A stretch of DNA of 64,000 nucleotides from Tricholomella constricta (Eukaryota; Basidiomycota; Agaricomycetes; Agaricales; Lyophyllaceae). The DNA is taken from positions 248,001 to 312,000 of the forward strand of contig JAACJP010000020.1 of assembly GCA_013368375.1 (NCBI GenBank). The letters run 5' to 3'. A model generated the notes under the pieces. The model saw nothing but the letters and a program-made list of their open reading frames with translations, had not been told where the DNA came from and did no database searches. The position numbers and the translations under genes are program-made. Below are positions 6,399 through 62,700 of the stretch, in pieces (the first letter of the stretch is position 1; each line of letters opens with the position of its first letter).

Positions 6399-6539
6399 GG
6401 TGTGGCATGCAATGTGCGCCACACAGCCACAGCGTGGCTGGACTCGATCACTTCGATCGAGTGGAGCTCCGATCGGGGGAGCGAAAAATTTTCTCTCTGC
6501 CCCCTTGTGCACTACCACTATCACTAAAAATCGCACCTA
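6399..6539 (+). other. Pol-ORF3 spacer with hairpin
   Basis: A 141-bp noncoding gap between pol and ORF3. It contains an 8-bp inverted repeat (6442-6462) of the form ACTCGATC-loop-GATCGAGT. ORF3 is in the pol frame but further stops lie between them, so ORF3 needs its own initiation or a subgenomic or spliced mRNA. Confidence 0.5.
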
Positions 6540-36237: not shown

Positions 36238-36244
36238 AGAGGAG
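36238..36244. repeat. Left 7-bp target duplication of element E
   Basis: AGAGGAG directly before the left inverted repeat; the matching copy is at 52346-52352. The D4 sequence at about 62284 shows the site without the insertion and with one copy, which confirms the length. Confidence 0.9.
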
Positions 36245-36589
36245 CACTTCAGTCAACCCCCTGGAGACCCCTTATTAGGGTAGTCAGTCCCACTGTGAAA
36301 GACTACCCTAACTAGGCCCTAGACCATGGTTCAGGACCACCCCCCCTGGGAATCCCATAATTAGGCATGGTCTTCCCATATTGGTCTTTCCCGACCATGC
36401 CCAGGGAGTGCCAAGTATTGTAATCTTGCCCAACTGTAATGTGGGGCTGCCCAAGAAATATGGGCAAGCCCAGCATGTCACGTCACACTTATCGCCAAGA
36501 CTATACACAATAAAACATGGTTCATCCAAGCACTTGGAAAGTTTCAATGAGCATCATGTCAGTTTTCTGGACAAACAAATGAAAATTTG
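36245..36589 (+). repeat. Left terminal inverted repeat of E
   Basis: About 345 bp matching the right end in reverse complement with few differences. Its inner end is AGTTTTCTGGACAAACAAAT. It carries GGGCAAGCCC, related to the subterminal GGGCAAGACC motif. Confidence 0.92.
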
Positions 36590-37451
36590 ATTAGATACAA
36601 AAAAATGAAAGCAAGTAGAAGAATAAGGTGTCTTATTGGAATAATTAGGTTAACAAAAAATATCTTGTCAGTTAGTAAAATATCTTTTGACCAGCATATA
36701 TTTTGTACATTCAAAACTTACACTCCATGCTCTTCACCTTGGGCAGAGCAACATCCATCCAGTCAATTTGAAGTGTATTTGCATGTTCACTGTGTATTTG
36801 GTAGCATATTGTACTATTTGTATTTAATAACATATAAAGGAGGGCCAAGTTTATATGCGAGCAACTATATTTGAACCACTCAGCAACTTTAGTAGTGCTG
36901 AATTACAGACCGTTAGGCAAGACCACACCTCACAAATGTGGTAGTTGGGAGTCCCAATACAGATGCAACTTCTTTTGGTAATCCCATCTTTGATGGTCCT
37001 AGACCAGTTGGGCAAGACCACACCTCACAAATGTGGTAGGTGGGAGTCCCAATTCAGATGCAACTTCTTTTGGTACTCCCATCTTTGATGGTCCTAGACC
37101 AGTTGGGCAAGACCACACCTCACAAATGTGGTGAGTGGGAGTCCCAATACAGGTGCAACTTCTTTTGGTACTCCCATCTTTGATGGTCCTAGACCAGTTG
37201 GGCAAGACCACACCTCACAAATATGTTTGGTGGGAGTCCCAATTGGGGTGTTCCACACTACCTGGGCAAGACCTTAGCTCAAATGGGAGTCCCAGTATTC
37301 AGTTTTTACAGTCTTGGGAGAATTGACATTCAAACAGATATAGTTCATGAATGCATTTAAGATGTCAAGCACAGTCCATGTATGGGTATAAAAATATGAT
37401 ATAAAGGAGCACATATAATCTATGGGCATAAGTTCTGAAAAGGCTAAGAAA
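36590..37451. repeat. Left subterminal region with a 95-bp tandem array
   Basis: AT-rich to 36911 with no gene. From 36912 to about 37300 there are nearly four copies of a 95-bp unit (starts 36912, 37007, 37102, 37197), each with AGACCAGTTGGGCAAGACC at the junction and CACACCTCACAAATGTGG inside. 37301-37451 is the 3' flank of the minus-strand gene. Confidence 0.85.
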
Positions 37452-40400
37452 CTAGTACTCGTACTCATCATCATCATCAGCATCATATTGGTTTTGATAA
37501 GTGGGAGGCTGATGTTGCATCACATACCCTCTTTCTGCACCTCCACGTGATGGGCCAGCTACAGGTTCCCTACTGCCATGCTGTGCACGTGCTCGTTGTG
37601 GAATTGGAGCAATTACACGAGGGTCCTGTTGTATGTCGCGAAGCTTTCGTTTCTTCACTGGAGGCTCCATGCCTTGAGAATCCCGAGCACGATGGGCACC
37701 AAAGTGGTGAGCGCGACCATCGGCTATCTCCAGATCAGCATCTTCATCTTCAGGGTATGGTTGGCGATGTAGCGGGGCTTGGTCATAGTGATTGCGTGGA
37801 TCCCTGTCACTGGTGTACTGGTGACGTCGAGCAGACTTCGCAGTCCGATTCCATGAGTGGTGATGTCTACCGCGGGATGGTGCTCGGAGATCAAGATGTG
37901 GGTGTTCTGCATGTGACTTTTGCAGGGGTGGCGGACGTTCGGACTGATGGCTCTCGCCAGGGGGGCGACCAACACGGGGCTTGTTTAGTGTCTGGGAGTG
38001 CTGAGCAGGGTGGCCACTGGTGTCATCTTCTGATTCTGAACGGTCTTCAGGATCTAAACGGTGCTCCTTAGTTTTGGAAAGCTCTCGCTTGTACTTCTTA
38101 GAATCCAGGAGCGTCAAGAGCACTACTCCATCGGTATTGATCACCAGTGGAACATTCTCTTGCTCACGCAGAGGCAATGCCTTTTCCTCTGAAGGCTGCC
38201 GTTAGTTTACATCTTAACGGTCAGAAATGTGACAACATACCATCATCCCAAGAAACAATCCTCACAATCTCATCAAAGTCCTCGTCCTCTGTTGACTTGA
38301 CTCGGTTATCAATCATGGCCTTCAGTTGCTTACTCCCGAAGTTCTTTGGCTCGCAATCAAGGCCTGGAGAGACAAGATCGATGGGCCAGCCTTCGAGGCG
38401 CATTTGATGGGTATATGCCATGTCGGCCCAGTGCTTCCACTGCATGGTGAGACTGTTGGCCTCTCTGTCCGAGAGTTTGTGACCAATAATATGACCTGAA
38501 GTCAAGACAGTGTCAGGATATTGTGGTGTGTACAGAGGTAACAACATACCTATGTCACTTCGCATAATCTCCCCCAAAAGGCGGCGATGGTGGTCTCTCA
38601 AGGCCGTCCCTTTGGTTTGTTCCCAGTTGACGGGGAACCGACTTCTTGCAACTGCGACGTGGCGACTGCGTACTTCAGCATTTCTAGAAATTATCTATGT
38701 TAGGCTAACATTAGGAGGCATTTATATGCGACGTACTTGAACATTCCTTCGTAGTCACCGAGTTGCGAGTTGATCGACGTCTTGTATTCGTTTCGTACTG
38801 CTACGTATCCAGGTGAACCACCCCATGCAACACTGGCACTTGCTCCTCGAAGATCTCGCTCCGTGTCGACACCAAAGCCAAAGACATGGACGCCGTATTG
38901 ATCCCAGGCTTGAATGCTCTGATTTTAGGTCATCAGACACGTCACTATGTTGAGAATACAAGGTGTTTACTTACCAAGTTGATGAACGGTTCAAGTATCC
39001 GGCTCATAACTGCCTTAAAATTCCCTGTATCCCGTTTACCTTCAACATAGACAGACAGACGCTCCTTGTACCAGTCTAACTGCTCCTTGAAGTGTGCTTC
39101 CCGTGCATCGGCACCGTGCGAGCCATCGAGTTCTTGGAGGTGCTTGTTGTACTCCTCTTTGACAAAAGACTGCCAGTCGCGTGCTGTGACTGTAGCGTAT
39201 TCATGTTAGTGACGGCGAAGCCTAAAGGTTCTGAAAAATGTACCATCATCGCTGCGCTTTGTCTTCCCATGCTCGCCGTACCAGGCTTGAAACACGTTCC
39301 AAGGATTTAGACGGCGAGGACGCTTCACGTCCTCGCCCACAGCTCGCTGTAAAACAAGCACTGACTTTCTGTACTTGACAGAAAGCTCTTCCAGGCTGTC
39401 GCGGTAGACCTGGTAACTCGCCAACGCAGCAGCGACTGCTTCTTTGGGCAGAGGACCAGAGGTGAGATCACCCTCCCCTCGGTCACTGTTCCCTCCTGCC
39501 CTGTCCCATCCCTCTCCCTCTACTTCTCCCTCTCTGATACTATCCCTGCCTCCCTGCTCGTCATCAGGTGCCTGCAGAGCAATCTGAGACTGAGCCCGCT
39601 GCTTGCCTTTCTGTTGAGCAGTCAAGCGCTCAGGAGACATATTTGCCTCCTTCAGGAATGCTTCCTCGTCTTCTTGGTCCTGTTCTTCGATGGTGGGGGT
39701 TGTCACGCGTCCGCGTTTGCGTTCACGAGCAAGAGCAGCTGTTTGCAATGCTGCCGCCTCCTCAAAGTCTGATGCACTAAGATCACTCTCCGGCGCGGGG
39801 CTCTCCAGTGAGGAAGAATCTGCGATGCCTCCCCATTCCTCCTCATCATTGTTTTCACCGCTGGCAGAGTCCTCATCTCCACCACCTGTGCCCTTGCCTT
39901 CGCCACCACTACCCTGACCTCTGCCGCCACTATTCTCATCCCCGCCATCCTCATCCCTGCCACCCTCATCCCTGCCACCATCATCCCCGCCACTCTCATT
40001 TCCACCACCGTCATCCCTGCCACCCTCATTCCCGCCACCCTCATTCCCGTCACCCTCATTCCCGCCACCCTCATTTCCGCCACCCTCATTCTGATGCTCT
40101 GCACTATCCTTGTCGCCACCACTCATACCATCTACATCCCCGCCGCCACCATTGCCATCTATATCATAATTGTTGAGTTCGTCGTCAAGCTCCAATTCGG
40201 CAGGGAGCATCAGGGTCAACGGAGAACTGGGCTCTTGTAACTCGACCTCATCAATGGATCCAAACGTGTCCTTCAACCCGGATCCCCATACCCGATTAGA
40301 AATGAACTGATTATCGTCGTTGTCGCGTAGTGCAGAGGATCTGTAGGTCTTCAAATGACGTGGACGTGGACGGTCCAAGGAAGGGGCCAACACAGACGCA

Positions 40401-40738
40401 GCCGCATTTGGAGGCGAGCATGGATGAGAAGGAGTGTCAGTAGCAGAAGATGCGTCAGGAATACTCTGAGCATCAGGTGGAAGGGAATTGGTGCTGCCAG
40501 ATGTGTCAGGAATAGCAGGAGTCTCGAGTGCTGTCTCCGAATTCCCTGGCGCAAATGCTGCATTCTCAGGAGGTGCAGAGTTGGCACCAAATGCTGCATT
40601 CAACGCATTTTCCAGACCGGCAGTAGCTAACGATGAGGCAGAGTGCGGAGTATCAGGTTTTTTGCGTTTGCCTGATGACCGACTACCCAGAGGCAGCTGA
40701 TGAAATGTACCCGATGGTTTCGAACGAGTAGTACGCAT
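37452..40738 (-). CDS. Uncharacterised agaricomycete protein encoded in E (six exons)
   Basis: Predicted exons (minus): 39244-40738, 38975-39189, 38737-38918, 38550-38683, 38241-38495, 37452-38188. All introns are 52-56 nt with GT-AG ends and every junction keeps frame, giving 1005 aa. The ATG at 40738 is used because a frame start further up lacks ATG. Residues 1-430 are low-complexity, with a G/N/E/D repeat tract (NEGGG units). Then comes YRDSLEELSVKYRKSV and NPWNVFQAWYGEHGK. Later exons contain YGVHVFGFGVDT, AWGGSPGYVAVRNEYK, HQMRLEGWP and EEKALPLREQ. This layout recurs in uncharacterised agaricomycete proteins (general knowledge). No enzyme motif is seen. It is divergent from the Spt5-like gene. 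Confidence 0.82.
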
Positions 40739-41784
40739 TGGTAGTTTCAACTACAAAGGGACGATACATTTGTTAGAACACGTAGACGTAGAATGAACAA
40801 CTTGTAACATACTTATTGAAAGCGAAAATGTCAGATTGGCCTTACAAGCAAGATCTAAACCGCACAAGATTAGTCTTGAAATCCATCAATCCGGGAATAC
40901 AACTGTCAGTAAGTACTGTTTACATATATATGAAGGCAATTATTTGGAACTCATAACTTCAGTCTTATTTATATGTGTAATATTGTCGTCAATTCAGGCT
41001 GATTCAATCAAACTTACAATCATTATAACGAACTATTCTATTCTATCCAATGTGTCCAAATTCAAAGTAATAATGGTCTACATTGCGTAAAGGTAACCTG
41101 GCTCATGTAATATACGACGAAAGCGGTCAACACAAGGAAACTACCAGAAGGCCCCAGGGCAGAGCACACAGCTTTCAGCACAGAGGGCAAGTGATGACGA
41201 GGCAGGCGACGACGGGGTACAGAAATTGGGTTGACTTTACCTGAAAACGGCAGGCGGGGTTGTCAGAAGCGCGTAAAAACATAAAATGGACGAGACTTAC
41301 CAGTGGGGCAGCACTCACAGCTGGCACATACGTAGGGCAGGCAATGACGATGAACAGGGGGGAGGGGGGTAATGATGACGAGCACCGTGGCCGACGATGA
41401 CGAGCAGAGGGGGGCCGGCCGGCAATGGGCAGCGAAGTCGACGGGTATCCATGCAAACTTGTCAGTAGGTGGTAGATGGATGAATGAGATACTTACTTGG
41501 GGGGAAGCAAACACAGCTGCAGGCAGGCAGAGAGGGCGATGGGCGGGGAAGGCGATGGGCGGGGAGGGTGACGAGCCTGAGAAAGGCGTTCAGAATTGTC
41601 GGGAACATAATGAGAACGGGGGAATGCTTACCTGGGGGGCGGGCGGCGATGACGAGCAGGGCAACGGCAATCGCGATGGGGAGAGGGTGACGAGCAGCCT
41701 GGAAAATAGCGTGCATCAACAGGAGACGAAGGAAACGAATAAAAAAAAAACTTACCGCGACGACGAGGAGCAGAGAGGGTGTAA
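40739..41784 (-). other. Leader-like region of the minus-strand gene
   Basis: No convincing ORF. 40750-41150 is AT-rich and plain. From about 41230 to 41760 the minus strand shows several consensus GTAAGT donors (near 41300, 41495, 41630, 41750), each followed after 40-60 nt by a CAG or TAG acceptor. Short GC-rich CCCTCTGCTCGTC-type stretches lie between them. This could be a multi-intron 5' untranslated leader. Confidence 0.4.
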
Positions 41785-42312
41785 CGATGAGCAGAGGGCA
41801 GGCGACGACGAGCAGAGGCCAACAGACGACGAGCAGAGAGGGCCGAGACGACGAGCAGAGGGGCAGGTGATGAGATGGTGGAAGAACGGGAAAGAAAACA
41901 ATAATTACAAGTGCACGCTCTTGCAGGGGGGATGTTTAGGGCAGGCCATAGCCACCCGTTACATAAACTGTACAGTCGCGGAATTTGCCGCGCTTTGGCC
42001 TGGGTTCGGACGAGCAAGAGCCCATCAACCGGATGTGGCCCAGACCAGTGCACGTGCCTTGCATCCGGTTGACGGGCTCTTGCTCATCCGCAGGTCAAAG
42101 TGCGGCAAGTTCCGCAACTGTACAGTTTATGTAACGGGTGGCTATGGCCTGCCCTAAACATCCCCCCTGCAAGAGCGTGCACTTGTAATTATTGTTTTCT
42201 TTCCCGTTCTTCCACCATCTCATCACCTGCCCCTCTGCTCGTCGTCTCGGCCCTCTCTGCTCGTCGTCTGTTGGCCTCTGCTCGTCGTCGCCTGCCCTCT
42301 GCTCGTCGTCGC
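41785..42312. repeat. Large imperfect palindrome between divergent genes
   Basis: Two inverted arms of about 250 bp (41785-42035 and 42062-42312) with a 26-bp spacer. The arms share GAGCAAGAGCCC near the centre, CTGTACAGT, CCACCCGTTACATAAACTG and CTGCTCGTCGTC repeats. Differences are small indels and several C/T or G/A changes. It sits where the minus-strand gene and the plus-strand Spt5-like gene diverge. It could be a shared promoter, a foldback element, or a source of hairpin RNA. Confidence 0.8.
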
Positions 42313-42330
42313 CCGCCCCTTCTGCCTCTT

Positions 42331-43334
42331 GTAAGTTTTTTTTTTTCCATTCATATGTTTTCTACCACCTGCTGACAATTCTGTACACTGCCCACCTGCC
42401 CCACTCTCATCTTCTTCTGCTCGTTGTCGTCGCCTGCGCCCATGTAAGTCCCGTCTTTGTCTAGTACACCTCTGGCTAATTCTTGTTTTCCAGGTTGCTC
42501 GTCGCCCTCCCTGCCCGTCGCCCTCCCTGCCCGTCGCCCTCCCTGCCCGTCGCCCTCCCTGCCCGTCGCCCTCCCTGCTCATCGCCCTCGCTGCCCATCG
42601 TCCTGTCCCTGCCCATTGCGCTCCCTGCCCGTCGCGCTCCCTGCTCGTGTCCATGTCCATGTAAGTCCCGTCTTTGTCTAGTACACCTCTGGCTAATTCT
42701 TGTTTTCCAGGTTGCTCGTCGCCCTCCCTGCTCGTCGCCCTCTCTCCTTGCCCGTCGCCCTCCCTGCTCGTGTCCATGTCCATGTAAGTCTTTTCTTTAT
42801 CGAGTACACCTCTGGCTAATTCTTGTTTTCCAGGTTGCTCGTCGCCCTCCCTGCTCGTTCCCTTCCCTGCTCGTCGCCCTGCCGCAATCCCTGTTTAAAG
42901 TGAGTATCTTCTTCTTTGTGTACTTATCACCTGTTAATGTTTCTGTACGCTATTTTGCAGGCTCCTCCTTGCCCGTCACCTGCTCATTATTGTCTGCTCT
43001 GCCCGCCGTTGCCCTCGGTAAGCCTTGCCATAACTGTCCTCTTCATTCCAATGTTGACTTGAATTACTTTAGGTTAGTTCTCAATCTTGATTTGATTTGT
43101 AGGTAAGTTTCAACATGACTATACCAGTATGTATTGCCGCTGATTGATCTTTGCTGTCCTTAGGTCACCATAGATTAACTAGTTTTCTTCCCTCTCTACA
43201 ATATTTGTTATTATGTCGCTTAGAGTAGCTTACATATGTATAATTTGAATGAAGATCTGCCCGAGCATGAGCGAGGAGTACAGTACTCCTCGCTGCTTCT
43301 AAGATTTTGTCACGCCTGATGGTGCCTTCTACAG
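42331..43334 (+). repeat. Repeated intron-like cassettes upstream of the Spt5-like gene
   Basis: Three near-identical 50-nt segments with GTAAGT, GCTAAT and TTTTCCAG occur at 42444-42493, 42661-42710 and 42784-42833. Further GT...AG pairs lie at 42331, at about 42900-42960 and in the region after 43016. Between them are arrays of GCCCGTCGCCCTCCCT-like 16-bp units. It mirrors the region left of the palindrome. A long plus-strand ORF crosses it (42483-43106) but ignores the splice signals and is probably not coding. Confidence 0.55.
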
Positions 43335-45848
43335 GCAAATGTGCAAACTCCCGCATCACAACGAAACAACCTGAAACGTCCACGGCTTGAGGTAAATACA
43401 TAGATCTCGCCTTGAACCACTGTCGTAGATGCCTAATGTCAGTTAAATAAATTCCAGAGAAATAGTGCCCATCAATTTCTGGACATAGAGGCCACGGTGG
43501 ACGGCGGCAATGAGACCGACGACGATGAGGACGACAGTGATTTAGGTTTACTATCTTCTCTTTTGTTATAATTTGTATAATGACACATATCCTTGCAGAA
43601 TTCATTGACGAAGGGGAGTCTGCTGCAGCTGACCGATCAACGTCACACCGCCGTCTCTTTCGGGAGTACCAGCGCATAGTAGAGACCTCGGATGATTGGG
43701 ATGAACTGGTACTCCGTGCACGTGAACGAGCACAGCACGACAGGATACCAGTGCCTTCACAACCAACGGATGATGAGCGACCGTTCGCTGAGAATGCACG
43801 TCTGTGGCGTGTCGCTGTCAAGGTGCGCCACATGCCAGAACATTGTGGAAAAACAACTAATCAAATGTAGTCCGGCTGTGAGGAAACCATAGTTTCCATA
43901 TTGATGGAAAAGGTCTTCCGTTCAGCAGGTCAATACTTGTCTGTGGCATCCATTGTTGGGAGAGTTTCTCGACCCGGCTGGATAGTGGTAGAAGCCACTC
44001 AGCTCAACGATGTCCGGGAACTATGTCAAGGTGTATCAAACATTTTCCCCCAGCGTGTCCATTTCGTTGAGCCATCGGACGCACCGGCCTGGCTCCAGGA
44101 AACTCCTGCATTTACTCCTCGCTCGCAATCGTGGATTCGCTTAACAAAGTACCCATATAAAGGTGTTTTTATAATTTCAATTCAAGTCTCGATCTGACAA
44201 ATTATCACAAAAGGCGATCTTGCCTACGTCCAACACTTCGGCGAGATGTGGCCTGGGCAGGCAAGGATCCTTGTCGTGCCACGTCTCAAACTCCAACCAC
44301 CATCCTCAGTTTCTGCTGGTAAGCGCAAGCGTACAGGACGCCCTCCCCAGGCCCTTTTCGATGCCAACTTTGTGAGATCAATTTATGGTGACGGTTCGGT
44401 AGAGACACGCAATCAAGTGTTTGTCTTCAAAGGACAAGTTTATCAAGATGGTTACCTACAGACGGACACCGACCTTTTTTATCCTCAGGAGGCGACACCG
44501 ACACCTGCAGAACTTGACCGCTTCCAACATGCTCAGGAAATTCCGAAAGGTTTCCTCGAGCACTCCTTGGAAGTGGCAGCTTCCAAGCGTCTACGTATTG
44601 GTGATCATGTCAAGGTAACGACTGGGCAGGCTCAAGGTTCTCTTGGAACGATTGAGAGCATTTCAGGGAATGAGGCTAGCCTGATCCTAAGGAACGGATC
44701 ATTACGTCTCTCTGTAGCTCTTGACGCGCTGCGCAAGGACCTCTCAATCGGAGATGAGATCATTGTTAGAGATGGCCCCAAGGCAGGTACTGTTGGTTGG
44801 GTGATAGCAGTCAGTGGAGAAGGCTTGGTTATTTATGATCGTGAACATGCACAGGAGGTTCGTCACTTCATTTATTTTTCGACCGAGAGGTATTGATGTA
44901 CTTTTAGATAGTAGTTGCTGCCCACTGCGTCGACTTTTTTGAGGCCGACTTTGTCAGAGCCTCGGGTAGTACAACGGTAGCCCAGAAAGTAAAGTTCAAA
45001 CGAGATCCACACCTCCACCTGTATGGAAAACATGTCCGGGTCATAAGGGGTAGCCGGTGGAAAGACTATGTAGGCATTGTGAAATCGGGTCTAGACGATG
45101 AGCATGTCCTTGTTGAATTCCAAGCAACCATGCGAAAAGAACGGATCCCTGTTTCGCAACTTAGTCTTCGGTATGTTCTAACATTCAAAACTAATCTGTA
45201 CTGACACATTCTACAGTAGTGATGCTGAACTTCGGCCGCTACAGGGACCAACTCTTCCTGTGGTTCCCTTACCCTCAAGCTCGCGTCAGCCATTAAATGC
45301 ACTGAGTCGTGCAGTTCCATCAACCCCGTTCCCAACACCGTCTACTGTAGAGCTCAGCCCAGCCTGGAATCCGTCTTCTCGGACACCAAACCCATTTACT
45401 GCATTCTGTAAGATTCTATTGACAAGTTGTTTCTTTGATTACTGACGCTTTTGTCGCAGCTTGTAATCTGTGGATAGAAAATCCTTTACTGGCAGGCAAG
45501 CGAATCAAAATGATAGTGAAGGATACACGACCTATGATCGGCAAACCAGGATGGGAAAATGGAAATTTCGAGGGAAGGCTAGGAATATGGGCGGGGGTCG
45601 AGGGAGGATTGGTCAAGCTTACTACTATCCAGTCTACACTTCTAGTCCCTGATAAGTACGTGCGACCCCTCAGACCTACTGTCAAGGGCCAGACTGCTGT
45701 CGTCCTTGAAGATGGCTCTATCACAGGCGTCGAGTACTATATCATCAGCTTAGATGGAGATCGGTGTATAGTACGACCTCGGAATGCAAAGAATGATCCT
45801 AAGAATAGACTAGATGTAGATATCAGTTCTTTAGGAGTCGTTGCTTGA
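43335..45848 (+). CDS. Spt5-like protein (NGN and KOW domains) carried by element E
   Basis: Predicted exons: 43335-43391 (start uncertain), 43458-43545, 43599-43822, 43871-44162, 44214-44857, 44908-45170, 45217-45407, 45460-45848. Introns are 46-66 nt, all GT-AG and frame-consistent; about 715 aa, N-terminus incomplete. The order matches Spt5. An acidic start holds QFLDIEATVDGG and FIDEGE. An NGN-like domain runs from WRVAVK to GVSNIFPQRVHFVEP. KOW1 follows with SWIRLTKYPYKGDLAYV. Further KOW units contain GDHVKVTTGQAQGSLGTI and KHVRVIRGSRWKDYVGIV. A single SPAWNPSSRTP resembles the Spt5 C-terminal repeat, and a last KOW-like unit begins GKRIKMIVKDTRP. Spt5 is a general transcription elongation factor. 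Here it is inferred to be captured transposon cargo; activity is unknown. Confidence 0.85.
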
Positions 45849-47157
45849 TTTTACATGCTCTAATTCTTCACTCGTTATTATATACTTCCTACAAACTACA
45901 TACTTAGCCTTGAAATAACCTTACTCGTATGCCCCCGCTCACATGTGAGCGGGGATGGTGTGAACATGAGTCGCCAGTTCATTTTGATGTCCACAAACCA
46001 GCCTCTGCAGTTGGAGCTACTGGAGTGTTACCCAGTGGACTTGGCGCCCTGGGAACCAGAGTGCGACATCAATTTTCAGGTGCTCCATGGACTATGGTTC
46101 GACACACACCTGACCTTTAAGTTGTTGTTGCAGCCTTATTAAGGTGTATGCACTACTTAAAGATGCACGAATCCTGCAGCCCAATATGGGTGAATGAGAG
46201 TGCAGTATGTCTGTGTGCGCCATCACATCCTTAAAATCTTTATTCTCGTATGGCCTTGGAAGTTCAAGGTGTGTATAAATCATTATCTAGTGTCCGCTTT
46301 TACTGAACTATGAGTACAAGAGGTGAATTGCGAGCTCCAGCTTGACCCGCAGCTACACCTTTGTCGAGTTCCGCTCCCAACGTTAATGTGACGCCGAAGA
46401 TGCCTACTATGAAATGTATGTCGTCCCCCCCCCCCCCTTTACCCTTCACTCAACTGCCTCTACCAGGCACAGCTGCTACTTTGAAGGCTCCCGCCTAAGC
46501 ATCCAGGTATATATACATCCCCTGCCGCTTTCGTTGGCTACTAACCACACTCGCAGTGGGCCAAAAATCCCCCCTCCTCTGTCTGGCGCTACGAGCGCCA
46601 TGCGTCCCCCCCACTGCCACCCCCAATACCGAGAGCACTGTGACCATGATCGCGACTGCTCCCGCAGCCCCCGCTGCCACATCCGCTGGGATGACCGCCA
46701 TGATGACCGCGACCGCCGGTGCTCCCGGAGCCCCGAACACCGCCGCCGCGACGACCGCACCAGTACACCGCTCCCACCGCTCACTGAGGATGTTATTATG
46801 AGCTCCAAGGACATCGTGGCACCCCGACAGGAGTGCCCTGCCCCTTTTCAATATCACAATGCACGTCGAGCTGTGTTGGTAGGTGCCGCATCCTCGCCAT
46901 TATGCAATAGCTAATTTTCACTCTCCTATAGCTGTGCCCCTACTTAATGCGAAGGGCGAGTGAGGAATTTTGATATATAATCTACCGTAATGTCGCACAG
47001 CAAGGCCTGCATCAGAGCGCAATGTACTTTTGTAGTGTATTTTTGTGTTGTACCGCGTCGGTCATGTGCAAACCCGATCAATTCTGGGCTTGCTGCACTG
47101 TTACCGCGACACGCTGCCCTCATTTCTCGGTCCTTGTTGCTGATTTTTTTTGGCAAT
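45849..47157 (+). other. Spacer between Spt5-like gene and transposase
   Basis: No well-supported gene. It contains a pure C tract (about 46426-46437). A 166-aa ORF at 46414-46914 is rich in R, D, H, S and P and has no relative I recognise; it could be a chance frame. An ORF frame continuing upstream of the transposase ATG to 46990 is possible but the chosen start at 47158 fits better. Confidence 0.5.
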
Positions 47158-50100
47158 ATGCGGCCTAGGCTAAGCAAAAAGATGAAGAGTGCAACTTCAA
47201 GTCCCAGCACACCACGATCTTACACACCAATCCCTGGTCCTAGCCGTCCTCATCATCTTAGCCGTCCTGACGGCATTCGTCCCCTTGTGTATCTACACCA
47301 TGGAGAATCTCTCATTCAGCAGCCTAACCTCCTGCGAATCCCTGGACAGGTCGGATTTGCAGGTGATCGTCCCCTCGACACAAACACATCCCCCGCTCCA
47401 CCCGCTGAGAATGCTGATCCATTTTCTGAAAACATGCTGGAGGATGATCTCACATACGTTCTCCCTTCAACTGTAGACCCCGCGCAGACTCGTTATCGCA
47501 AGAAGCGGTTCAATCAGTCCAATCGCTGGATGGTGGAGGTCATTCCAAGCCTTGTTATTCCCTATATGCATTATCTCAGCATGTCCTTGTCTTTGCGGCT
47601 TGACGTGACACCAGAGGTGTCGTGCATATGCGAAGGCCCCAGGAGGGTATTTGGCATTATAGTAGTCAAATTTTCAGGTGTGTTGCAATGTGATCTGGAC
47701 GTTTGCAAGTCACTAATCAAATTTATCAGTTCTCGAGTCCACAAGAATCAATACCTGTGAATGTGCGCCGGCCGCATTGCAACTCATCAAAATGGGACTT
47801 TTTCCATGCTCGCCCATCGCTCCTACTCTGGCTGTTGATGTTCGAGTTTTGGACTTTGTTACCCGTCTTTTTGTCCACATTCCACCCAATAATACAGCAT
47901 GGTGTCGTACAGTGGAGGAATTCCTTGATTCGCAGGGCTACAAGCTCACAACACAGGTCGGTGTCTCATACATCAAAGATTTTACATGTCCTGACAAACC
48001 TAACGTGCAGGGCTCACTACGAAGGCGGTTTTCAAATGCGTTGCAGTGGTATAACATGCTCCAGGACGCCACCACCAAACATGTCGATATGGAGCTCACA
48101 CAAGTGCGGAGGGTGGTAACCGGTGACCGACATGGTAGTCTGGTAGACGGCAGTGCCAACATTGAACATTCCACGGCCCCTCCTACACCAAGTCGTCACC
48201 GTGTAACTGTTGAGGCCTTGGACACCGAGGATGAAGAAATCTATGAACCCCACTCTCCCTCAAAACGACGACGAGCAGCCGAAGAGGAAGATCCATTTAG
48301 CATGTCTTCTCAGCCTTTTCCTGTACCAGTTGCTCGAGGACGGCCCAGTGATTATCTTCGAACTCGATGCCCTCTTTGCTTTGGAGGAGAGTATCCACGA
48401 CAGGAAAACTCAGGGTAGGTGGTATCTTGCACATCAGAATCAATATATATTCAAATTTTCTTCAGTCCAGACGCTATTGTATGTGTCGATGCATGCTTCA
48501 CGCAGAAACGCAATAAGCAGGCACGAGACCCAGTCCGCACCCACCCAAGGACAGTTTTCGTTCCCGAGTCAGACACAATTCACATGGCCCGCTATGTTGA
48601 GAGTGTTCGCCCAACCAGATCTAAACCACGCAAGCAGAGCCGTCGACAGGATGATGAACAGGATGACAAATATGAGGGACCTTTACGTGTTCCAAAGTCA
48701 GTGCTGGATGGGTGTGAGGCAGGATTCACGGCAGCTGATGATGCAAGGACCAAGGCGAGCACCCAGTTCTTTGATGATACTGCACTGATGGCTTTGCTTT
48801 GCCGTCACGACCGAGTACTCTGGATTGTCAATATGCGGTCTGCTGGCGAGAAACAGCACTACACCCTGGTCCTCATTGAGACCCTCTTTCAACACCTACC
48901 TCTCTCCTTTCAGATCGGGCTCCTCTACGACATTGGCTGCCAGCTCCACCGCAGCTGTATCAAATGGGGTTTTCTTGACCGTTATCTTCATCGTTTGACC
49001 TTTGCGATCTCTGTCTTCCATGCATTTGGTCACCAATGGGCATGTCAAATTATTTACCATCCACGCAAATGTGAAGGGTTTGGACTTTCGGATGGTGAAG
49101 GCTGTGAGCGCTTCTGGCACTCAATCAGTAAGCTTATTTCTTACCTGCGAGTCTGCGGTGTAAGTTTTCTGATATTCATAATTTTCTTTTTGACTGATAA
49201 TACAATTTTTAGTACCATCAACGGATCTACACCCTTGATCGTCAGGTCCAGCAAGCAGACAGAGAAGGCCTCGTAAAGCTAGTAACATGGCTGTTGCGTC
49301 GTACCAGACATTGTCAAGAAAAACGTTGTACAGCTGAAGAAGTCTTGCATGCCTGCGGAAAATCGGAGGAGCTTCTTCGGAATGAGTGGAACTCACAAGT
49401 TGAGGCACAAACAAAGCCATTACCACGTGAGTCACCCACCAAACAACTTCCACAATATCTGAGCACCTTTTCCAGGTCGATCAAAAAACCAAGGCAAGAA
49501 TGCAGTCGAGGAGGCAATCCGCCAGCGGAAGGCACGTGACATTCTCAAGCAACGTGTGACAGATTCAGAAAACATCATCTTGGATCCTCATGTTGACTTT
49601 GTTGATATTGGCCGTGCTGAGATGCAAATAGCTGACTTGCGCACCCAGCTGGAGCATGCAGAAGCTGCTGTCAGGAGCAAAGAACGTGCTCTGGGGGTTG
49701 ACGAGCGGGCAGAGTTGCGTCGTCTGGCTGGCAATCCATTTATTGCAGCCCGGATGAATGCTCGTGCATTGAAGATGCGCTTACGGGAGAAACTGCGGGC
49801 CCGCAAGTTTGAGATGGACCGTGTAGAGCGATCATTTCGCAAGCAGGTGAACGGTAAGTGTTTTTCAAAGCAATTTGATCACAGCAGGCTTATAGGATAT
49901 TTAGAGCAGAAGGTCCACTCACATACTGAGGCCTCTGTTCGAAGGCGTGATCCTAGCATTCAACAGCTGGCACGTGACTACAACAAGCTTTGTGATGTCA
50001 TGCAGTCTTTGATAGACTCTAGGAAGGCTCCCCATGGTGCTATCTGCCCACCTCATATTGAAACAAAAGGGCTGTTTGCTCTGGATGTTGATGATGAGAT

Positions 50101-50669
50101 CTGGCAAGATGTGGGCTTGGAAGAGGACATATCAAATGAGCCACCCCTCTGGCTGTCTGATGACCATGTGAGAGATGGAATCAAAGCTCGCCTTGAGCTT
50201 GATCGATGTGTAGAAGAGGAAAGAAGGCTGGTACATGAGCGAAGAGCACTTCAAATCTGGTTTTCTGAGGAATGGAAGGTAATCTGTAATGCAATCAACT
50301 CCACTGGTATTTTCTTTTTGATTTCATTGTGATTGGGCCTTTGTTAACCTTCTTTTTTCAGACTCTTCATCTCTCAAATATCAATTTGAAGTCAGAAGAC
50401 GTGACCTTCTTCGCCTCTACGTTACATGGCAATTGCCCCTGCGCACTCTTCATACAGGTCAAGATCCACTTCCAGAATGGGGACCTACACAGCAAGAGCT
50501 GCTCAATGCCAGCATTGATCAGGTAACAGCTGCATCTGTTGATCAGAATGATAATGAATCTTCTGAAGATGAACTCAATGAAGAGTTTGATATTGATATT
50601 GACAATTACTTGGTGGAGACTTTAGATGCATTAGATTTTGCAGCCTCATATCGTAATGAGACAGAGTAA
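47158..50669 (+). CDS. KDZ (Kyakuja-Dileera-Zisupton) transposase with CxC cluster
   Basis: Predicted exons: 47158-47677, 47730-48414, 48466-49159, 49213-49426, 49476-49853, 49896-50306, 50362-50669; introns 42-55 nt, all frame-consistent, 1069 aa. The N-terminus has a basic MRPRLSKKMK start. A region with RWMVEVIPSLVIPYM leads into the CxC cysteine cluster: CIC...CEC...GLFPC. The following LAVDVRVLDFVTRLF and TAWCRTVEEFL blocks are typical. The RNase H-fold catalytic part shows aspartates in VCVDACFTQKR and LLYDIGCQL, with GLSDGEGCERFW as the probable glutamate region. The C-terminus is coiled-coil-rich (many E/R/A heptads) and ends in an acidic tail. No stop or frameshift is seen, so it may be functional. 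Confidence 0.92.
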
Positions 50670-51914
50670 CTAGAAGATCAATTGACACTTATGGCCTGTT
50701 TGCCCCTTTTCCAATATTCCTAACAATTACTAAATACCCTGTACCATGTGTAACCTTATATATGAGAAGCTCATGTGTTATATAAACCATATATGGTCTT
50801 GCCCAGTTATATTGGCCTTGCCCATACTGAAATATGGGAGTCCCATATATGATATTCAAACACATTGGTCTTGCCCATCTGGTCAAGTACCACTGCATGT
50901 TGGGAATCCCATGTGCTGTATAAATTACATATGGTCTTGCCCAGTTGTAGTGGTCTTGCCCATCTGGTCCAGTACTACTGCATGTTGGGAATCCCATGTG
51001 CTGTATAAATTACATATGGTCTTGCCCAGTTGTAGTGGTCTTGCCCATCTGGTCCAGTACCACTGCATGCTGGGAATCCCGCATGTTGTATAAATTACAT
51101 ATGGTCTTGCCCAGTTGTAGTGGTCTTGCCCATCTGGTCCAGTACCACTGCATGTTGGGAATCCCGCATGCTGTATAAATTACATATGGTCTTGCCCAGT
51201 TGTAGTGGTCTTGCCCATACTGAGATATGGGAGTCCCATATATGATGATTAAACACATTGGTCTTGCCCATCTGGTCCAGTACCACTGCATGTCGGGAAT
51301 CCCATGTGCTGTATAAATTACATATGGTCTTGCCCAGTTGTAGTGGTCTTGCCCATGGGAGTCCCATATATGATAATTAAACACATTGGTCTTGCCCATC
51401 TGGTCCAGTACCATTGCATGTTGGGAATCCCGCATGCTTATAATATGTAACCATACTGGAATATGAGAGTCGCATGTATGATAATTAAACATATTGATCT
51501 TGCTCATCTGCAGTACCACTGTACATATACACTTTAATGAACCCCTTCCCAGATGAATAGCACATGTCTTGCATCAGGAGTAAATAACATGTAGTCTTAT
51601 TATCTCCTCACAATCTCGTCTGGACACATGTGAACATATTGCAAACTTGAGTATTGTATATGGAACCAAATATTTGATTACCCATCACATGGAGCACTGA
51701 ACAGAACATTGTGCCATAATCACACGTAGTTGAAATACATTTTGAAATGCATGCAATTGCTGTGGTGCTTACAAAGAAAAAATTCTCACTGTGTGGCGCG
51801 ACAGCTTAAAGAATGTGTCTTAATCACTTAATACCTCCAAATACATCAACAGTTGTTTAAGGCATGTCGCACTCAAAAGAGGATTACCACAGACAGCCTT
51901 GGCTTTTTTGTATG
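50670..51914. repeat. Right subterminal region with an 85-bp tandem array
   Basis: No gene. From about 50793 to 51515 an 85-bp unit repeats (for example starts 50867, 50952, 51037, 51122, 51207), with some units altered by a CATACTGAAATATGGGAGTC insert. The core GGTCTTGCCCATCTGGTCCAG is the reverse complement of the left-end core. 51516-51914 is plain AT-rich sequence. Confidence 0.85.
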
Positions 51915-52345
51915 CAAATTTTTATTTGTTTGTCCAGGACTATGCCTGCTTGACAAAACTGACATGATGCTCATTGAAACTTTCCAAGTGCCTGGATGAA
52001 CTATGTTTTATTGTGTACGGCCTTGGCTATAAGTGTGACATGACAAGCCCAGTTCCAAGTGCCTGATTGAACCATGTTTTATTCTATGGTCTTGGCTATA
52101 AGTGTGACGTGACATGCTGGGCTTGCCCATATTTCTTGGGCAGCCCCACATTACAGTTGGACAAGATTACAATACTTGGCACTCCCTGGGCATGGTTGGG
52201 AAAGACCAATGTGGGAGGACCATGCCTAATTATGGGATTCCCAGGGGGGGTGGTCCCGAACCATGGTCTAGGGCCTAGTTAGGGTAGTCTTTCACAGTGG
52301 GACTGACTACCCTAATAAGGGGTCTCCAGGGGGTTGACTGAAGTG
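51915..52345 (-). repeat. Right terminal inverted repeat of E
   Basis: About 431 bp, longer than the left arm because a roughly 80-bp segment (around CACTTGGAA and GTGACATGACA, about 51985-52085) is duplicated. The terminal GGTTGACTGAAGTG is followed by the AGAGGAG duplication at 52346-52352. Confidence 0.92.
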
Positions 52346-52352
52346 AGAGGAG

Positions 52353-53909
52353 GACGATGTGCTGAAAGCAATCCGCAAGGGCAATCGCGACGGAGCACAG
52401 GAGGATGCGGTCGCGAAAGCAGCGCAACTGGTCAAGGCATCCAACATCGCCGGTCGCTCCCTACGCTTCGGCGAGTGGGGAGAGGAAGGCGGTCTGCTCA
52501 CGTTCCGTGGACGGATCTATGTCCTGAACGTTCCTGACCTCCGCCGACGCATTGTGGAGCAGCATCATGACTCCAAGGTCGCCGGTCACCCGGGTCGCTG
52601 GAAGACGCTCGAGCTGGTGTCGCGCAACTACTGGTGGCCCCAGATGTCGCGCTTCATCGGTTCATACACCAGCACCTGCGACATGTGCTTGCGCACGAAA
52701 CCCCGCCGCCAACTCCCCGTCGGACAGCTGCAGCCGCTCCCAATTCCCGAAGGCCGATGGAATGTCGTATCGGTCGACTTCATCACCGAACTCCCAGAGT
52801 CCAACGGCCATGACGCGATCATGAACGTCGTGGATTCAGTCGGAAAACGCGCGCATTTCATCGCGTCGCACATGACCTGTTCGGCCTTGGGAGCTGCGAA
52901 TCTCTACCGTCGCCACGTCTGGAAGCTGCACGGTCTCCCCGACGCATTCGTCTCCGATCGAGGTCCACAGTTTGTTGCCGAGTTCACGCGCGAACTGTAC
53001 CGGCTCCTGGGTATCAAGCTGTCGGCCTCGACGGCCTACCACCCTCAGACCGACGGACAGACTGAGCGCGTCAACCAGGAGCTGGAACAGTTCTTGCGGG
53101 TCTTCTGCAACGAGCGTCAGAACGACTGGGAGGACCTTCTGCCCGACGCCGAATTCAGTTACAACAACCATGTACATTCGGCGACGCAGCAGACCCCCTT
53201 CTTGCTCGACACTGGTCGGCATCCGCGCATGGGCTTCGAGCCTCGTCGGGGCGCTTCCAAGAACGAGTCGGCCGACGAGTTCGTGGAGCGCATGAAGGAA
53301 GCACAGGAGGAAGCCAAGGCGGCGCTTTCAAAGGCCAAAGATGACATGGAGCGGTATTACAATCAGCGACACGCCCCGACACCCGACTACCAGCCGGGTG
53401 ACAAGGTGTACTTGGACGCGACCGACATTTCTACGACCCGACCGTCTAAGAAATTATCGCATCGCTACCTTGGCCCTTTCGTCGTGCAAAGGCAAGTCGG
53501 CCCGCTCGCATACCGCCTCCTGCTGCCTCAGTCCATGAAGCGCATCCACCCAGTCTTCCACGTCATAAAGCTTGTCCCCGCCGTCGCTGACCCGATTGAA
53601 GGTCGACAGTCCGACCCTCCGCCGCCACCAGACATCATCGATGACGAACCCCACTACGAAGTCCACAAAATCCTCGACAGTCGCATCTTCCGCAAGAAAC
53701 TTCAGTACAAGATCTTGTGGAAAGGCTACGGCTATGAAGAAGCTTCGTGGGAGCCCAGGGAGAACGTCGCCGCACCCGACCTGGTTCGCAAGTTCCACCG
53801 CGACAATCCTGATGCTGCGCGCCACATCCGTGGCATCTTCACTCTATCCCCCGCCGTCTTCGCCACCGTCACCCCGCACCGAGCCGTTGCGATTCAAAAG
53901 GGGGGGTGA
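52353..53909 (+). pseudogene. Pol C-part of D2 (integrase and chromodomain) beyond element E
   Basis: Continues D pol after E; the short preceding piece is at 36182-36244. It holds the integrase HHCC domain (HHDSKVAGHPGRWKT, CDMCLRTKPRR), the DDE residues (VDFITELP, SDRGPQF, TERVNQE), the GDKVYLD C-terminal module, and a chromodomain (YEVHKILDSR, ILWKGYGYEEASWEPREN). It is close to D1 throughout. The stop TGA touches the LTR and the polypurine run is inside the last codons. It is separated from its RT by the B fragment and by E. Confidence 0.93.
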
Positions 53910-61733: not shown

Positions 61734-62225
61734 TGTAAGGACGCCCACTATCTTATCTAATATTGGTTATCTAATCGTATCTTATCGAGACGATTACGCT
61801 ATTGTTTGGCAACACCTTCTGGTGTTGCCTATTTAATTCATTACATTAACTAAGTATAAACAACCTTGTACACCTATACGTAGCAATCGACAGACTTGTC
61901 AAGCTTACGTCTAGTGTGAACAACAAGGTCCCCAAAATCTGTAACTCCGTTACATTTTTTTAAGCTACCTTGCTTTCTATTGCTGCGTACCCACGACGTT
62001 ACGCAGACCCACATTCCATTTAGAACTCCCATCATCAAAAGAACCACGAGACCCAGACCCGATTCGCAGGAGTCAATCAATTGCGGACGGAATACATGCT
62101 GCCGGAGAGCAGCATAAAACTAAGATGCACGAACGGTTGCATCAACTGATACACGAGCGACTGGCTGTACGCCTATCGCTCCCTGATGGTATGAAATCTT
62201 GTCGTGCGGACTCAAAGTCCGTAGG
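61734..62225 (+). repeat. B-family LTR/leader/gag fragment inside D4
   Basis: Same 492-bp fragment and same end points as in D2 (35687-36178): a 221-bp LTR (61734-61954), leader, then the gag piece ending TCCGTAGG. The filler GTA leads to D pol at 62229. Confidence 0.93.
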
Positions 62226-62228
62226 GTA

Positions 62229-62700
62229 CTGCTCAAGCCCGAGTTCTTCGCTGTTCGTGTGACCGAAGGACTTGCACTGGTCGGAGAGGAGGACGATGTG
62301 CTGAAAGCGATCCGCAAGGGCAATCGCGACGGAGCACAGGAGGATGCGGTCGCGAAAGCAGCGCAACTGGTCAAGGCATCCAACATCGCCGGTCGCTCCC
62401 TACGCTTCGGCGAGTGGGGAGAGGAAGGCGGTCTGCTCACGTTCCGTGGACGGATCTATGTCCTGAACGTTCCTGACCTCCGCCGACGCATTGTGGAGCA
62501 GCATCATGACTCCAAGGTCGCCGGTCACCCGGGTCGCTGGAAGACGCTCGAGCTGGTGTCGCGCAACTACTGGTGGCCCCAGATGTCGCGCTTCATCGGT
62601 TCATACACCAGCACCTGCGACATGTGCTTGCGCATGAAACCCCGCCGCCAACTCCCCGTCGGACAGCTGCAGCCGCTCCCAATTCCCGAAGGCCGATGGA
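62229..62700 (+). pseudogene. D4 integrase N-part, ends in a second switch to B
   Basis: Starts CTGCTCAAGCCCGAG (LLKPEFFAV...) and runs through the HHCC domain (CDMCLRMKPRR) to EGRWN. It then switches to B pol at 62700/62702 with about 2-3 bp of shared sequence. The uninterrupted target of element E (one AGAGGAG followed by GACGATG) lies at about 62284-62297. Confidence 0.9.

What the first reader, a model, noticed from the sequence alone, without database searches (positions are those of the whole stretch)
43335..45848. An Spt5-like elongation factor gene carried inside a KDZ DNA transposon
Between inverted repeats that end in CACTTCAG and a 7-bp target duplication lies a multi-exon gene with the Spt5 order: acidic N-terminus, NGN-like domain, KOW units, and one SPAWNPSSRTP that resembles the Spt5 C-terminal repeat. 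KDZ elements are known for carrying TET/JBP DNA-modifying genes; none is visible here. A captured elongation factor could help transcribe silenced or methylated copies, or interfere with host Spt5 (inference). I know of no described transposon of this kind.
Basis: partly seen in the sequence, partly recalled or inferred. Interest (0 to 1): 0.9.

Follow-up and report, generated by a model that had tools for sequence, protein, structure and literature searches.

The report
Transposon carrying an Spt5-like elongation gene
A 16-kb jumping gene in a mushroom carries, next to its own transposase, a slimmed-down version of Spt5, a factor that keeps RNA polymerase II moving, and spreads it around the genome, which suggests that the parasite brings its own transcription helper.

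Summary
The window is from Tricholomella constricta (name). The element spans 36245-52345 (16,101 bp): TIRs of at least 250 nt (6 mismatches), CACTTCAG ends, TSD AGAGGAG. Another Ty3 copy in the window holds the empty target (398 of 400 bases). It encodes a KDZ transposase (1,069 aa), an unknown 1,005-aa protein and an Spt5-like protein (about 729 aa; NGN 7e-12). Of 10 transposase-bearing copies found, 9 hold the Spt5-like gene; 5 are intact. dN/dS between diverged copies is 0.25-0.44, one pair 0.79 and not significant. Other KDZ families here lie beside TET/JBP-like hits, all below the Pfam cut-off; this one does not. The protein is no recent copy of host Spt5: it belongs to a fast-evolving, multi-copy Spt5-like clade that I found only in Lyophyllaceae, in searches that scored about 8,000 candidates. 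KOW4 seems lost; one C-terminal repeat remains. Most likely mechanism (inferred): with host Spt4 it drives Pol II through the element's own silenced genes. Expression is untested; KDZ linkage in other species could not be tested.

The parts
36238..36244 (.). left target-site duplication AGAGGAG
36245..36494 (+). left terminal inverted repeat (at least 250 nt), begins CACTTCAG
   Evidence: 6 mismatches in 250 to the right arm; 23 matches to its first 196 nt in the genome
37009..37273 (-). left subterminal repeats, 4 copies of TGGGCAAGACC
37452..40738 (-). unknown 1,005-aa protein, 6 exons, acidic and Gly-rich first half
   Evidence: spliced; no Pfam match up to E 0.1; a 392-aa piece of it matches 11 places in this genome, all in elements or left-end fragments of this family
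41784..42309 (.). large palindrome (219-nt arms, 98%) between the two divergent genes
42444..42833 (+). three near-identical 50-nt GTAAGT...TTTCCAG intron-like units upstream of the Spt5-like gene
43236..43277 (+). candidate first exon (MYNLNEDLPEHERG), uncertain
   Evidence: in frame; ATG and splice sites kept in the 4 further intact copies and in C11, stop inside it in C1; NCBI models use other upstream exons
43335..45848 (+). Spt5-like gene, exons 43335-43391, 43458-43545, 43599-43822, 43871-44162, 44214-44857, 44908-45170, 45217-45407, 45460-45848
   Evidence: fold of the C35 copy
43799..44089 (+). NGN domain (residues 130-210, one intron)
45356..45388 (+). single C-terminal-repeat-like motif SPAWNPSSRTP
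47158..50669 (+). KDZ transposase, 7 exons, 1,069 aa
   Evidence: spliced; Pfam KDZ 1e-57 and CxC1 6.2e-8 on its open stretches
50795..51398 (+). right subterminal repeats, 14 copies of GGTCTTGCCCA, inverted relative to the left set
52096..52345 (-). right terminal inverted repeat, ends CTGAAGTG
52346..52352 (.). right target-site duplication AGAGGAG
62092..62491 (+). uninterrupted (empty) target in another copy of the retrotransposon into which the element is inserted
   Evidence: 398 of 400 bases; the ORF beside the insertion (52347-53906) has integrase zinc-binding, Tf2-1 SH3 and chromo domains

Best explanation
A KDZ-superfamily DNA transposon that has recruited a member of a diverged Spt5-like family as a working accessory gene. 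Shown: one TIR- and TSD-bounded unit with transposase, Spt5-like gene and an unknown third gene; spread of that unit to many sites; protein-level selection on the Spt5-like gene. Inferred: the product pairs with host Spt4, binds Pol II through its NGN and KOW domains and raises processivity on the element's own intron-rich genes in methylated or repressed chromatin, so that transposase is made despite silencing. Losing the KOW4 region and all but one C-terminal repeat would loosen its control by host kinases and partners. It would fill the place that TET/JBP-like genes fill beside other KDZ families of this genome. I hold the anatomy at above 0.95; the score below is for anatomy and mechanism together.
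For: Unit: TIR pairs bracket the gene or its pieces in 8 copies, and a ninth is split between contigs C31 and C51; exact 7-bp TSD in 5 of 9 TIR pairs, 8 bp in C35, an 8-bp match between the C31 and C51 ends; empty site. Linkage: 8 of 20 NGN hits belong to this family, 4.6-5.1 kb from its KDZ hit in 7 and 11 kb in C16, where the gene is split; remnants in C18, so 9 of 10 transposase copies. Selection: dN/dS window-C31 0.34 (p 5e-4), window-C35 0.36 (4e-6), C31-C35 0.31 (5e-7), window-C1 0.43 (3e-6). Introns: all 8 GT-AG pairs kept in the 6 other copies that span them. Fold: best Foldseek hits are Pol II-bound Spt5 chains. The NGN Glu that I recall as the Spt4 contact is kept in 17 of 17 rows that cover it, 3 of them canonical Spt5. 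One Spt4 locus found.
Against: No expression, binding or transposition data. dN/dS pairs share copies and are not independent; C35-C1 gives 0.79 (p 0.46), and pairs of near-identical copies give 0.64-1.26 or undefined values, without power. Four of 9 gene copies are broken (C11, C1, C16, C18), and one of 10 transposase copies (C20:353858-360757) lacks the gene. Whole-chain fold overlap is poor (TM 0.25 by model, 0.40 by target; rmsd 38 for the best hit): single domains match, not their arrangement. The target of the protein could be host Pol II in general rather than the element.
Confidence: 0.45

Rival explanations
1. Decoy or dominant negative: the shortened protein occupies Spt4 or the Spt5 site on Pol II and blocks a host Spt5-like factor that works in silencing, as plant SPT5L/KTF1 does with Pol V.
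For: T. constricta has 11 other NGN hits outside this family besides canonical Spt5, and relatives occur several times in other Lyophyllaceae; KTF1 works with Pol V in DNA methylation (PMC10229537, passages). The KOW4 region and the repeats are reduced, as in a truncated competitor.
Against: No GW/WG-rich stretch such as I recall for KTF1: 3 isolated GW and no WG in 729 aa. The NGN-KOW order and a C-terminal domain are kept, more than a decoy needs. No silencing role of the host paralogs is known to me.
Confidence: 0.2
2. Transposition cofactor: the protein acts on DNA or RNA during transposition, or on host replication or repair, not on transcription.
For: KOW domains bind nucleic acid (general knowledge); the gene is kept with the transposase.
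Against: The NGN fold and the recalled Spt4-contact Glu are conserved, which a mere nucleic-acid binder would not need.
Confidence: 0.1
3. Passenger: a chance captured gene without benefit to the element, or one kept because it serves the fungus.
For: Four of 9 copies are broken; the host paralogs C46 and C20:51k are also under selection (dN/dS 0.30), so the family has a role outside the transposon.
Against: dN/dS well under 1 between most diverged copies, and exon indels in intact copies are multiples of three. The gene is kept in 9 of 10 transposase copies.
Confidence: 0.2

Closest known systems
TET/JBP-carrying KDZ (Kyakuja, Dileera, Zisupton) transposons of fungi (Kojima 2025, PMC12730594; Iyer et al. 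2014, recalled, not held)
   Same: KDZ transposase, CA..TG ends, 7-8-bp TSDs, and an accessory gene linked to chromatin or transcription.
   Different: The accessory gene is an Spt5-like factor, not a dioxygenase; long TIRs, whereas Kojima reports none for two Laccaria Kyakuja families; an extra 1,005-aa protein.
VANDAL elements with the anti-silencing protein VANC (PMC5735166, abstract)
   Same: A DNA transposon encoding a separate protein that defeats silencing; VANC targets often form tandem repeats, and this element has subterminal repeats.
   Different: VANC causes sequence-specific methylation loss and is not an elongation factor (the latter is my knowledge); no binding site was tested here.
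Spt5 (DSIF large subunit)
   Same: NGN, KOW1, KOW2-3, a KOW5-like domain, one C-terminal repeat and a C-terminal domain in the same order.
   Different: KOW4 region apparently missing, one repeat, 28% identity over 57% of the query to mushroom Spt5 P0018, fast evolving.
Plant SPT5L/KTF1 and Paramecium Spt5m (PMC10229537, passages; PMC8934623, abstract)
   Same: Second, specialised Spt5 proteins tied to silencing or to germline transcription before DNA elimination.
   Different: Those are host genes; here the gene is in the transposon, and there is no GW/WG-rich region.

Membership tests
KDZ superfamily DNA transposon | KDZ transposase domain | tested here: met
   1e-57, 195.8 bits, cut-off 26.6
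KDZ superfamily DNA transposon | CxC cysteine cluster before the catalytic domain | tested here: met
   CxC1 33.2 bits, cut-off 26.9
KDZ superfamily DNA transposon | 7-8-bp TSD, CA..TG ends, multi-copy mobility | tested here: met
   no TSD for C20:353858-360757, 6 of 7 bases for C11, a 7-bp match one base off the end for C7
Kyakuja as described by Kojima 2025 | no TIRs | tested here: not met
   TIR of 250 nt or more; the transposase was not placed on a subfamily tree
TET/JBP-carrying transposon | TET/JBP gene inside the element | tested here: not met
   no Tet_JBP hit at E 0.001 in any copy
Spt5 | NGN and several KOW domains in order | tested here: met
   fold of the C35 copy
Spt5 | acidic N-terminal domain (Spt5_N) | tested here: inconclusive
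   14.6 bits, cut-off 24.2; 21 acidic and 7 basic among the first 75 residues
Spt5 | multiple C-terminal repeats | tested here: not met
   1 PAWN motif; of 3 canonical rows P0018 has 3, P0019 and P0020 have none of this form
Spt5 | KOW4 region | tested here: inconclusive
   gap in the pairwise alignment to P0018, but the KOW4_SPT5 profile just passes its cut-off, on residues 358-385, where KOW2 also matches
Spt5 | binds Spt4 and Pol II | not testable with these tools
   Glu at the recalled Spt4 contact kept in 17 of 17 covering rows
SPT5L/KTF1 | GW/WG-rich Argonaute-binding region (recalled) | tested here: not met
   3 GW, 0 WG in 729 aa

The most novel reading that the evidence does not exclude
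A eukaryotic transposon encodes its own RNA polymerase II elongation factor as an anti-silencing device: it does not erase the silencing mark, it pushes polymerase through it. The fast-evolving Spt5-like clade of Lyophyllaceae would then be the product of an arms race over who controls Pol II elongation on repeats, with members shuttling between host and transposons.
Probability: 0.35. Interest if true: 0.92.

Novelty: new variant of a known kind. Interest (0 to 1): 0.8.

Why it matters
Transposons are known or thought to fight silencing by removing marks (TET/JBP, VANC). A transposon-borne elongation factor would be a different strategy, aimed at the transcription step itself, and it gives a sharply defined natural protein with which to ask whether elongation control decides the expression of silenced repeats. 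It also offers a natural reduced Spt5 with a single C-terminal repeat.

Tried and rejected
Spurious domain match: rejected; profiles, PDB sequences and fold agree. Recent copy of host Spt5: rejected; the host Spt5 piece (C5) falls with canonical Spt5, the KDZ copies with the Spt5-like clade. Recent copy of a T. constricta paralog: not supported; the KDZ copies form their own clade (100/100) on a stem of 0.53-0.58, though deep forks are weakly supported and warns of long branches meeting. KDZ linkage in other species: I compared the contig lengths of Spt5-like and KDZ hits and found no match between the two in another species; the KDZ listing shows 120 of 308 hits, so this is no proof of absence. 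Other paralogs as KDZ cargo: of the 11 other NGN hits only C59 lies about 8 kb from a listed KDZ hit, little beyond chance (116 listed positions put 4% of the genome within 8 kb; I copied those positions by hand from a printed list that was itself cut). The C46, C4 and C74 copies are near-identical 9.5-kb blocks near contig ends; C62, C59, C42, C20:50656 and C38 share 2.8-3.5 kb with them at 78-91%; their flanks were not seen. Third gene: no Pfam match; the one PDB hit (0.0027) falls on a glycine-rich linker protein. Paper on the Spt4-contact Glu338: none found, so that role is recalled. Iyer 2014 is not held. One search (KDZ transpos, fungal, cargo) listed nothing on this point by title.

Full report
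What is there. The window is G000:C20:248001-312000 of a 44-Mb genome. Proteins on contigs of exactly the lengths of C35, C7, C11 and C1 are named Tricholomella constricta, family Lyophyllaceae. Inverted repeats beginning CACTTCAG lie at 36245 and 52345, flanked by AGAGGAG. The first 250 nt of the arms differ at 6 sites. The insertion sits beside an ORF with integrase zinc-binding, Tf2-1 SH3 and chromo domains, that is, in a Ty3-type retrotransposon. A second copy of that retrotransposon in the window has the same sequence without the insertion: 398 of 400 joined bases. The element is therefore 16,101 bp, inserted with a 7-bp duplication.

Genes. (1) KDZ transposase, 47158-50669 +, 7 exons, 1,069 aa, KDZ 1e-57 and CxC1 6.2e-8. 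(2) Spt5-like gene, 43335-45848 + with an uncertain upstream exon at 43236, 729 aa as I spliced it. (3) An unknown 1,005-aa protein, 40738-37452 -, no Pfam match. Genes 2 and 3 diverge from either side of a palindrome at 41784-42309. Subterminal repeats, 14 right and 4 left in opposite orientation, hold all 18 exact copies of GGTCTTGCCC in the window.

Copies. A search with the first 196 nt of the TIR gave 23 matches. With they define 10 elements with transposase: C20:284245-300345 (window), C20:112662-128726, C7:675016-691080, C31 with C51 (one element across a contig break, inferred from an 8-bp TSD), C11:48782-71377, C35:65651-82247, C1:824307-851564, C16:627401-654581, C18:173841-201620 and C20:353858-360757. 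The last, 6.9 kb, lacks the Spt5-like gene; the other 9 hold it whole or in part. Two further left-end fragments (C15, C16:717693) match gene 3 and have no listed transposase hit. Of 9 TIR pairs, 5 have exact 7-bp TSDs; C35 has 8 bp; C7 and C11 are imperfect; C20:353858-360757 has none. The Spt5-like gene is open in 5 of 9 (window, C20:119k, C7, C31, C35), frameshifted in C11, with premature stops in C1, split in C16 (a hit of the joined retrotransposon flanks lies in the gap) and largely deleted in C18. In the 6 other copies that span all 8 introns every GT-AG is kept.

Selection. Between diverged copies dN/dS is 0.34 (window-C31), 0.33 (window-C11), 0.36 (window-C35), 0.31 (C31-C35) and 0.43 (window-C1), each p below 0.001; over all such pairs 0.25-0.44, except C35-C1 with 0.79 (p 0.46); pairs within the near-identical groups have too few changes (0.64-1.26 or undefined). 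For the transposase (up to 578 codons of three stretches, whose ends include a few intron codons) window against C35, C31, C11 and C1 gives 0.10-0.15 and against C18 0.19; window-C20:356k 0.30 (p 0.23), C35-C1 0.49, C18-C1 0.48 and C35-C18 1.36 are not significant, and the other window pairs have no synonymous change. Pairs share copies and are not independent.

Cargo compared. Tet_JBP has 23 hits in the genome; 12 lie within 8 kb of a listed KDZ hit, none of them in this family. Those 12 score 24.0-31.7 bits, below the Pfam cut-off of 34.9; the 6 hits over the cut-off are not near a listed KDZ hit. So they are TET/JBP-like, read as TET cargo because of their spacing (2.4-4.8 kb) and the published link. 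NGN has 20 hits; 7 lie within 8 kb of a listed KDZ hit, all in this family, C16 at 11 kb is the eighth, and C59 lies 8.0 kb from another KDZ hit.

Origin. Protein searches gave 20 and 23 hits. All named hits other than Spt5 of Volvariella and Sanghuangporus are from Tricholomella, Lyophyllum, Sphagnurus, Termitomyces, Arthromyces and Tephrocybe, all Lyophyllaceae; three unnamed hits (P0020, P0031, P0032) have the domain list of canonical Spt5. About 8,000 candidates were scored each time, so wider spread is possible. Trees put the KDZ copies in one clade (100/100) within the Spt5-like clade (100/99, 100/100), apart from the T. constricta paralogs. Most rows of the other genera have end branches of 0.6-1.0 (two Lyophyllum and two Tephrocybe rows pair on short ones), the three canonical mushroom rows 0.06-0.32; the unnamed P0020 has 1.7-1.8. 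Paralogs C46 and C20:51k give dN/dS 0.30 (p 1e-4). The first KDZ transposases listed outside T. constricta are from Flammula, Hypsizygus and Lyophyllum. Hypsizygus is Lyophyllaceae too and gave no Spt5-like hit.

How it may work. Shown: a mobile, selected, structurally Spt5-like protein; one Spt4 locus in the genome. Inferred: it pairs with Spt4, binds Pol II and helps transcription of the element through repressive chromatin. Kojima 2025 (PMC12730594; abstract, Introduction, section 3.2, first part of the Discussion and passages seen) argues for escape from silencing for TET/JBP and has no word beginning elongation in its main text. Plant KTF1 binds Pol V by KOW5 (PMC10229537, passages), and Paramecium Spt5m with Spt4 serves germline transcription (PMC8934623, abstract): second Spt5 proteins do become specialised around transposon control.

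Novelty. Searches for Spt5 with KDZ (0 papers), transposon-encoded with elongation factor and Spt5 (1 unrelated paper) and KOW, Spt5, Basidiomycota, transposable element (7 papers with 3 of the 4 terms, none of this kind by title and start of abstract) found no such element in the held open-access library; most subscription papers are not held. UniRef already calls several of these proteins chromatin elongation factor (names cut in the listing).

Noticed in passing
window 41374-42974: Large palindrome with CTCGTCG-rich repeats between two divergent genes; three near-identical 50-nt GT-AG intron-like units in tandem (42444, 42661, 42784), as if the leader had multiplied exon plus intron.
   Followed up: partly
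window 37452-40738 (-): Unknown 1,005-aa protein; a 392-aa piece matches 11 places in this genome (58 matches), all in elements or left-end fragments of this family.
   Followed up: partly
window 37009-37273 and 50795-51398: Inverted sets of subterminal GGTCTTGCCCA repeats (4 left, 14 right), candidate transposase or regulator sites.
   Followed up: partly
L078; G000 C46, C4, C74: Near-identical 9.5-kb blocks near three contig ends hold another Spt5-like gene; related 2.8-3.5-kb units are dispersed in C62, C59, C42, C20:50656 and C38. Perhaps mobile on their own.
   Followed up: partly
L077 3166-3315: 71-nt near-perfect hairpin upstream of a non-KDZ Spt5-like gene; a stretch matching both strands also lies in L078 near 6490-6657.
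   Followed up: no
G000 C67, C5, C33, C10, C42, C27, C14, C29, C56, C50, C22, C51: Tet_JBP hits 2.4-4.8 kb from KDZ hits, 12 of 23, all below the Pfam cut-off: TET-like KDZ families seem to coexist with the Spt5-carrying one.
   Followed up: partly
P0024, P0025 (Lyophyllum atratum): Near-identical Spt5-like proteins; P0025 stands for 2 sequences on 2 contigs, a hint that relatives are repeated in that genome too.
   Followed up: no
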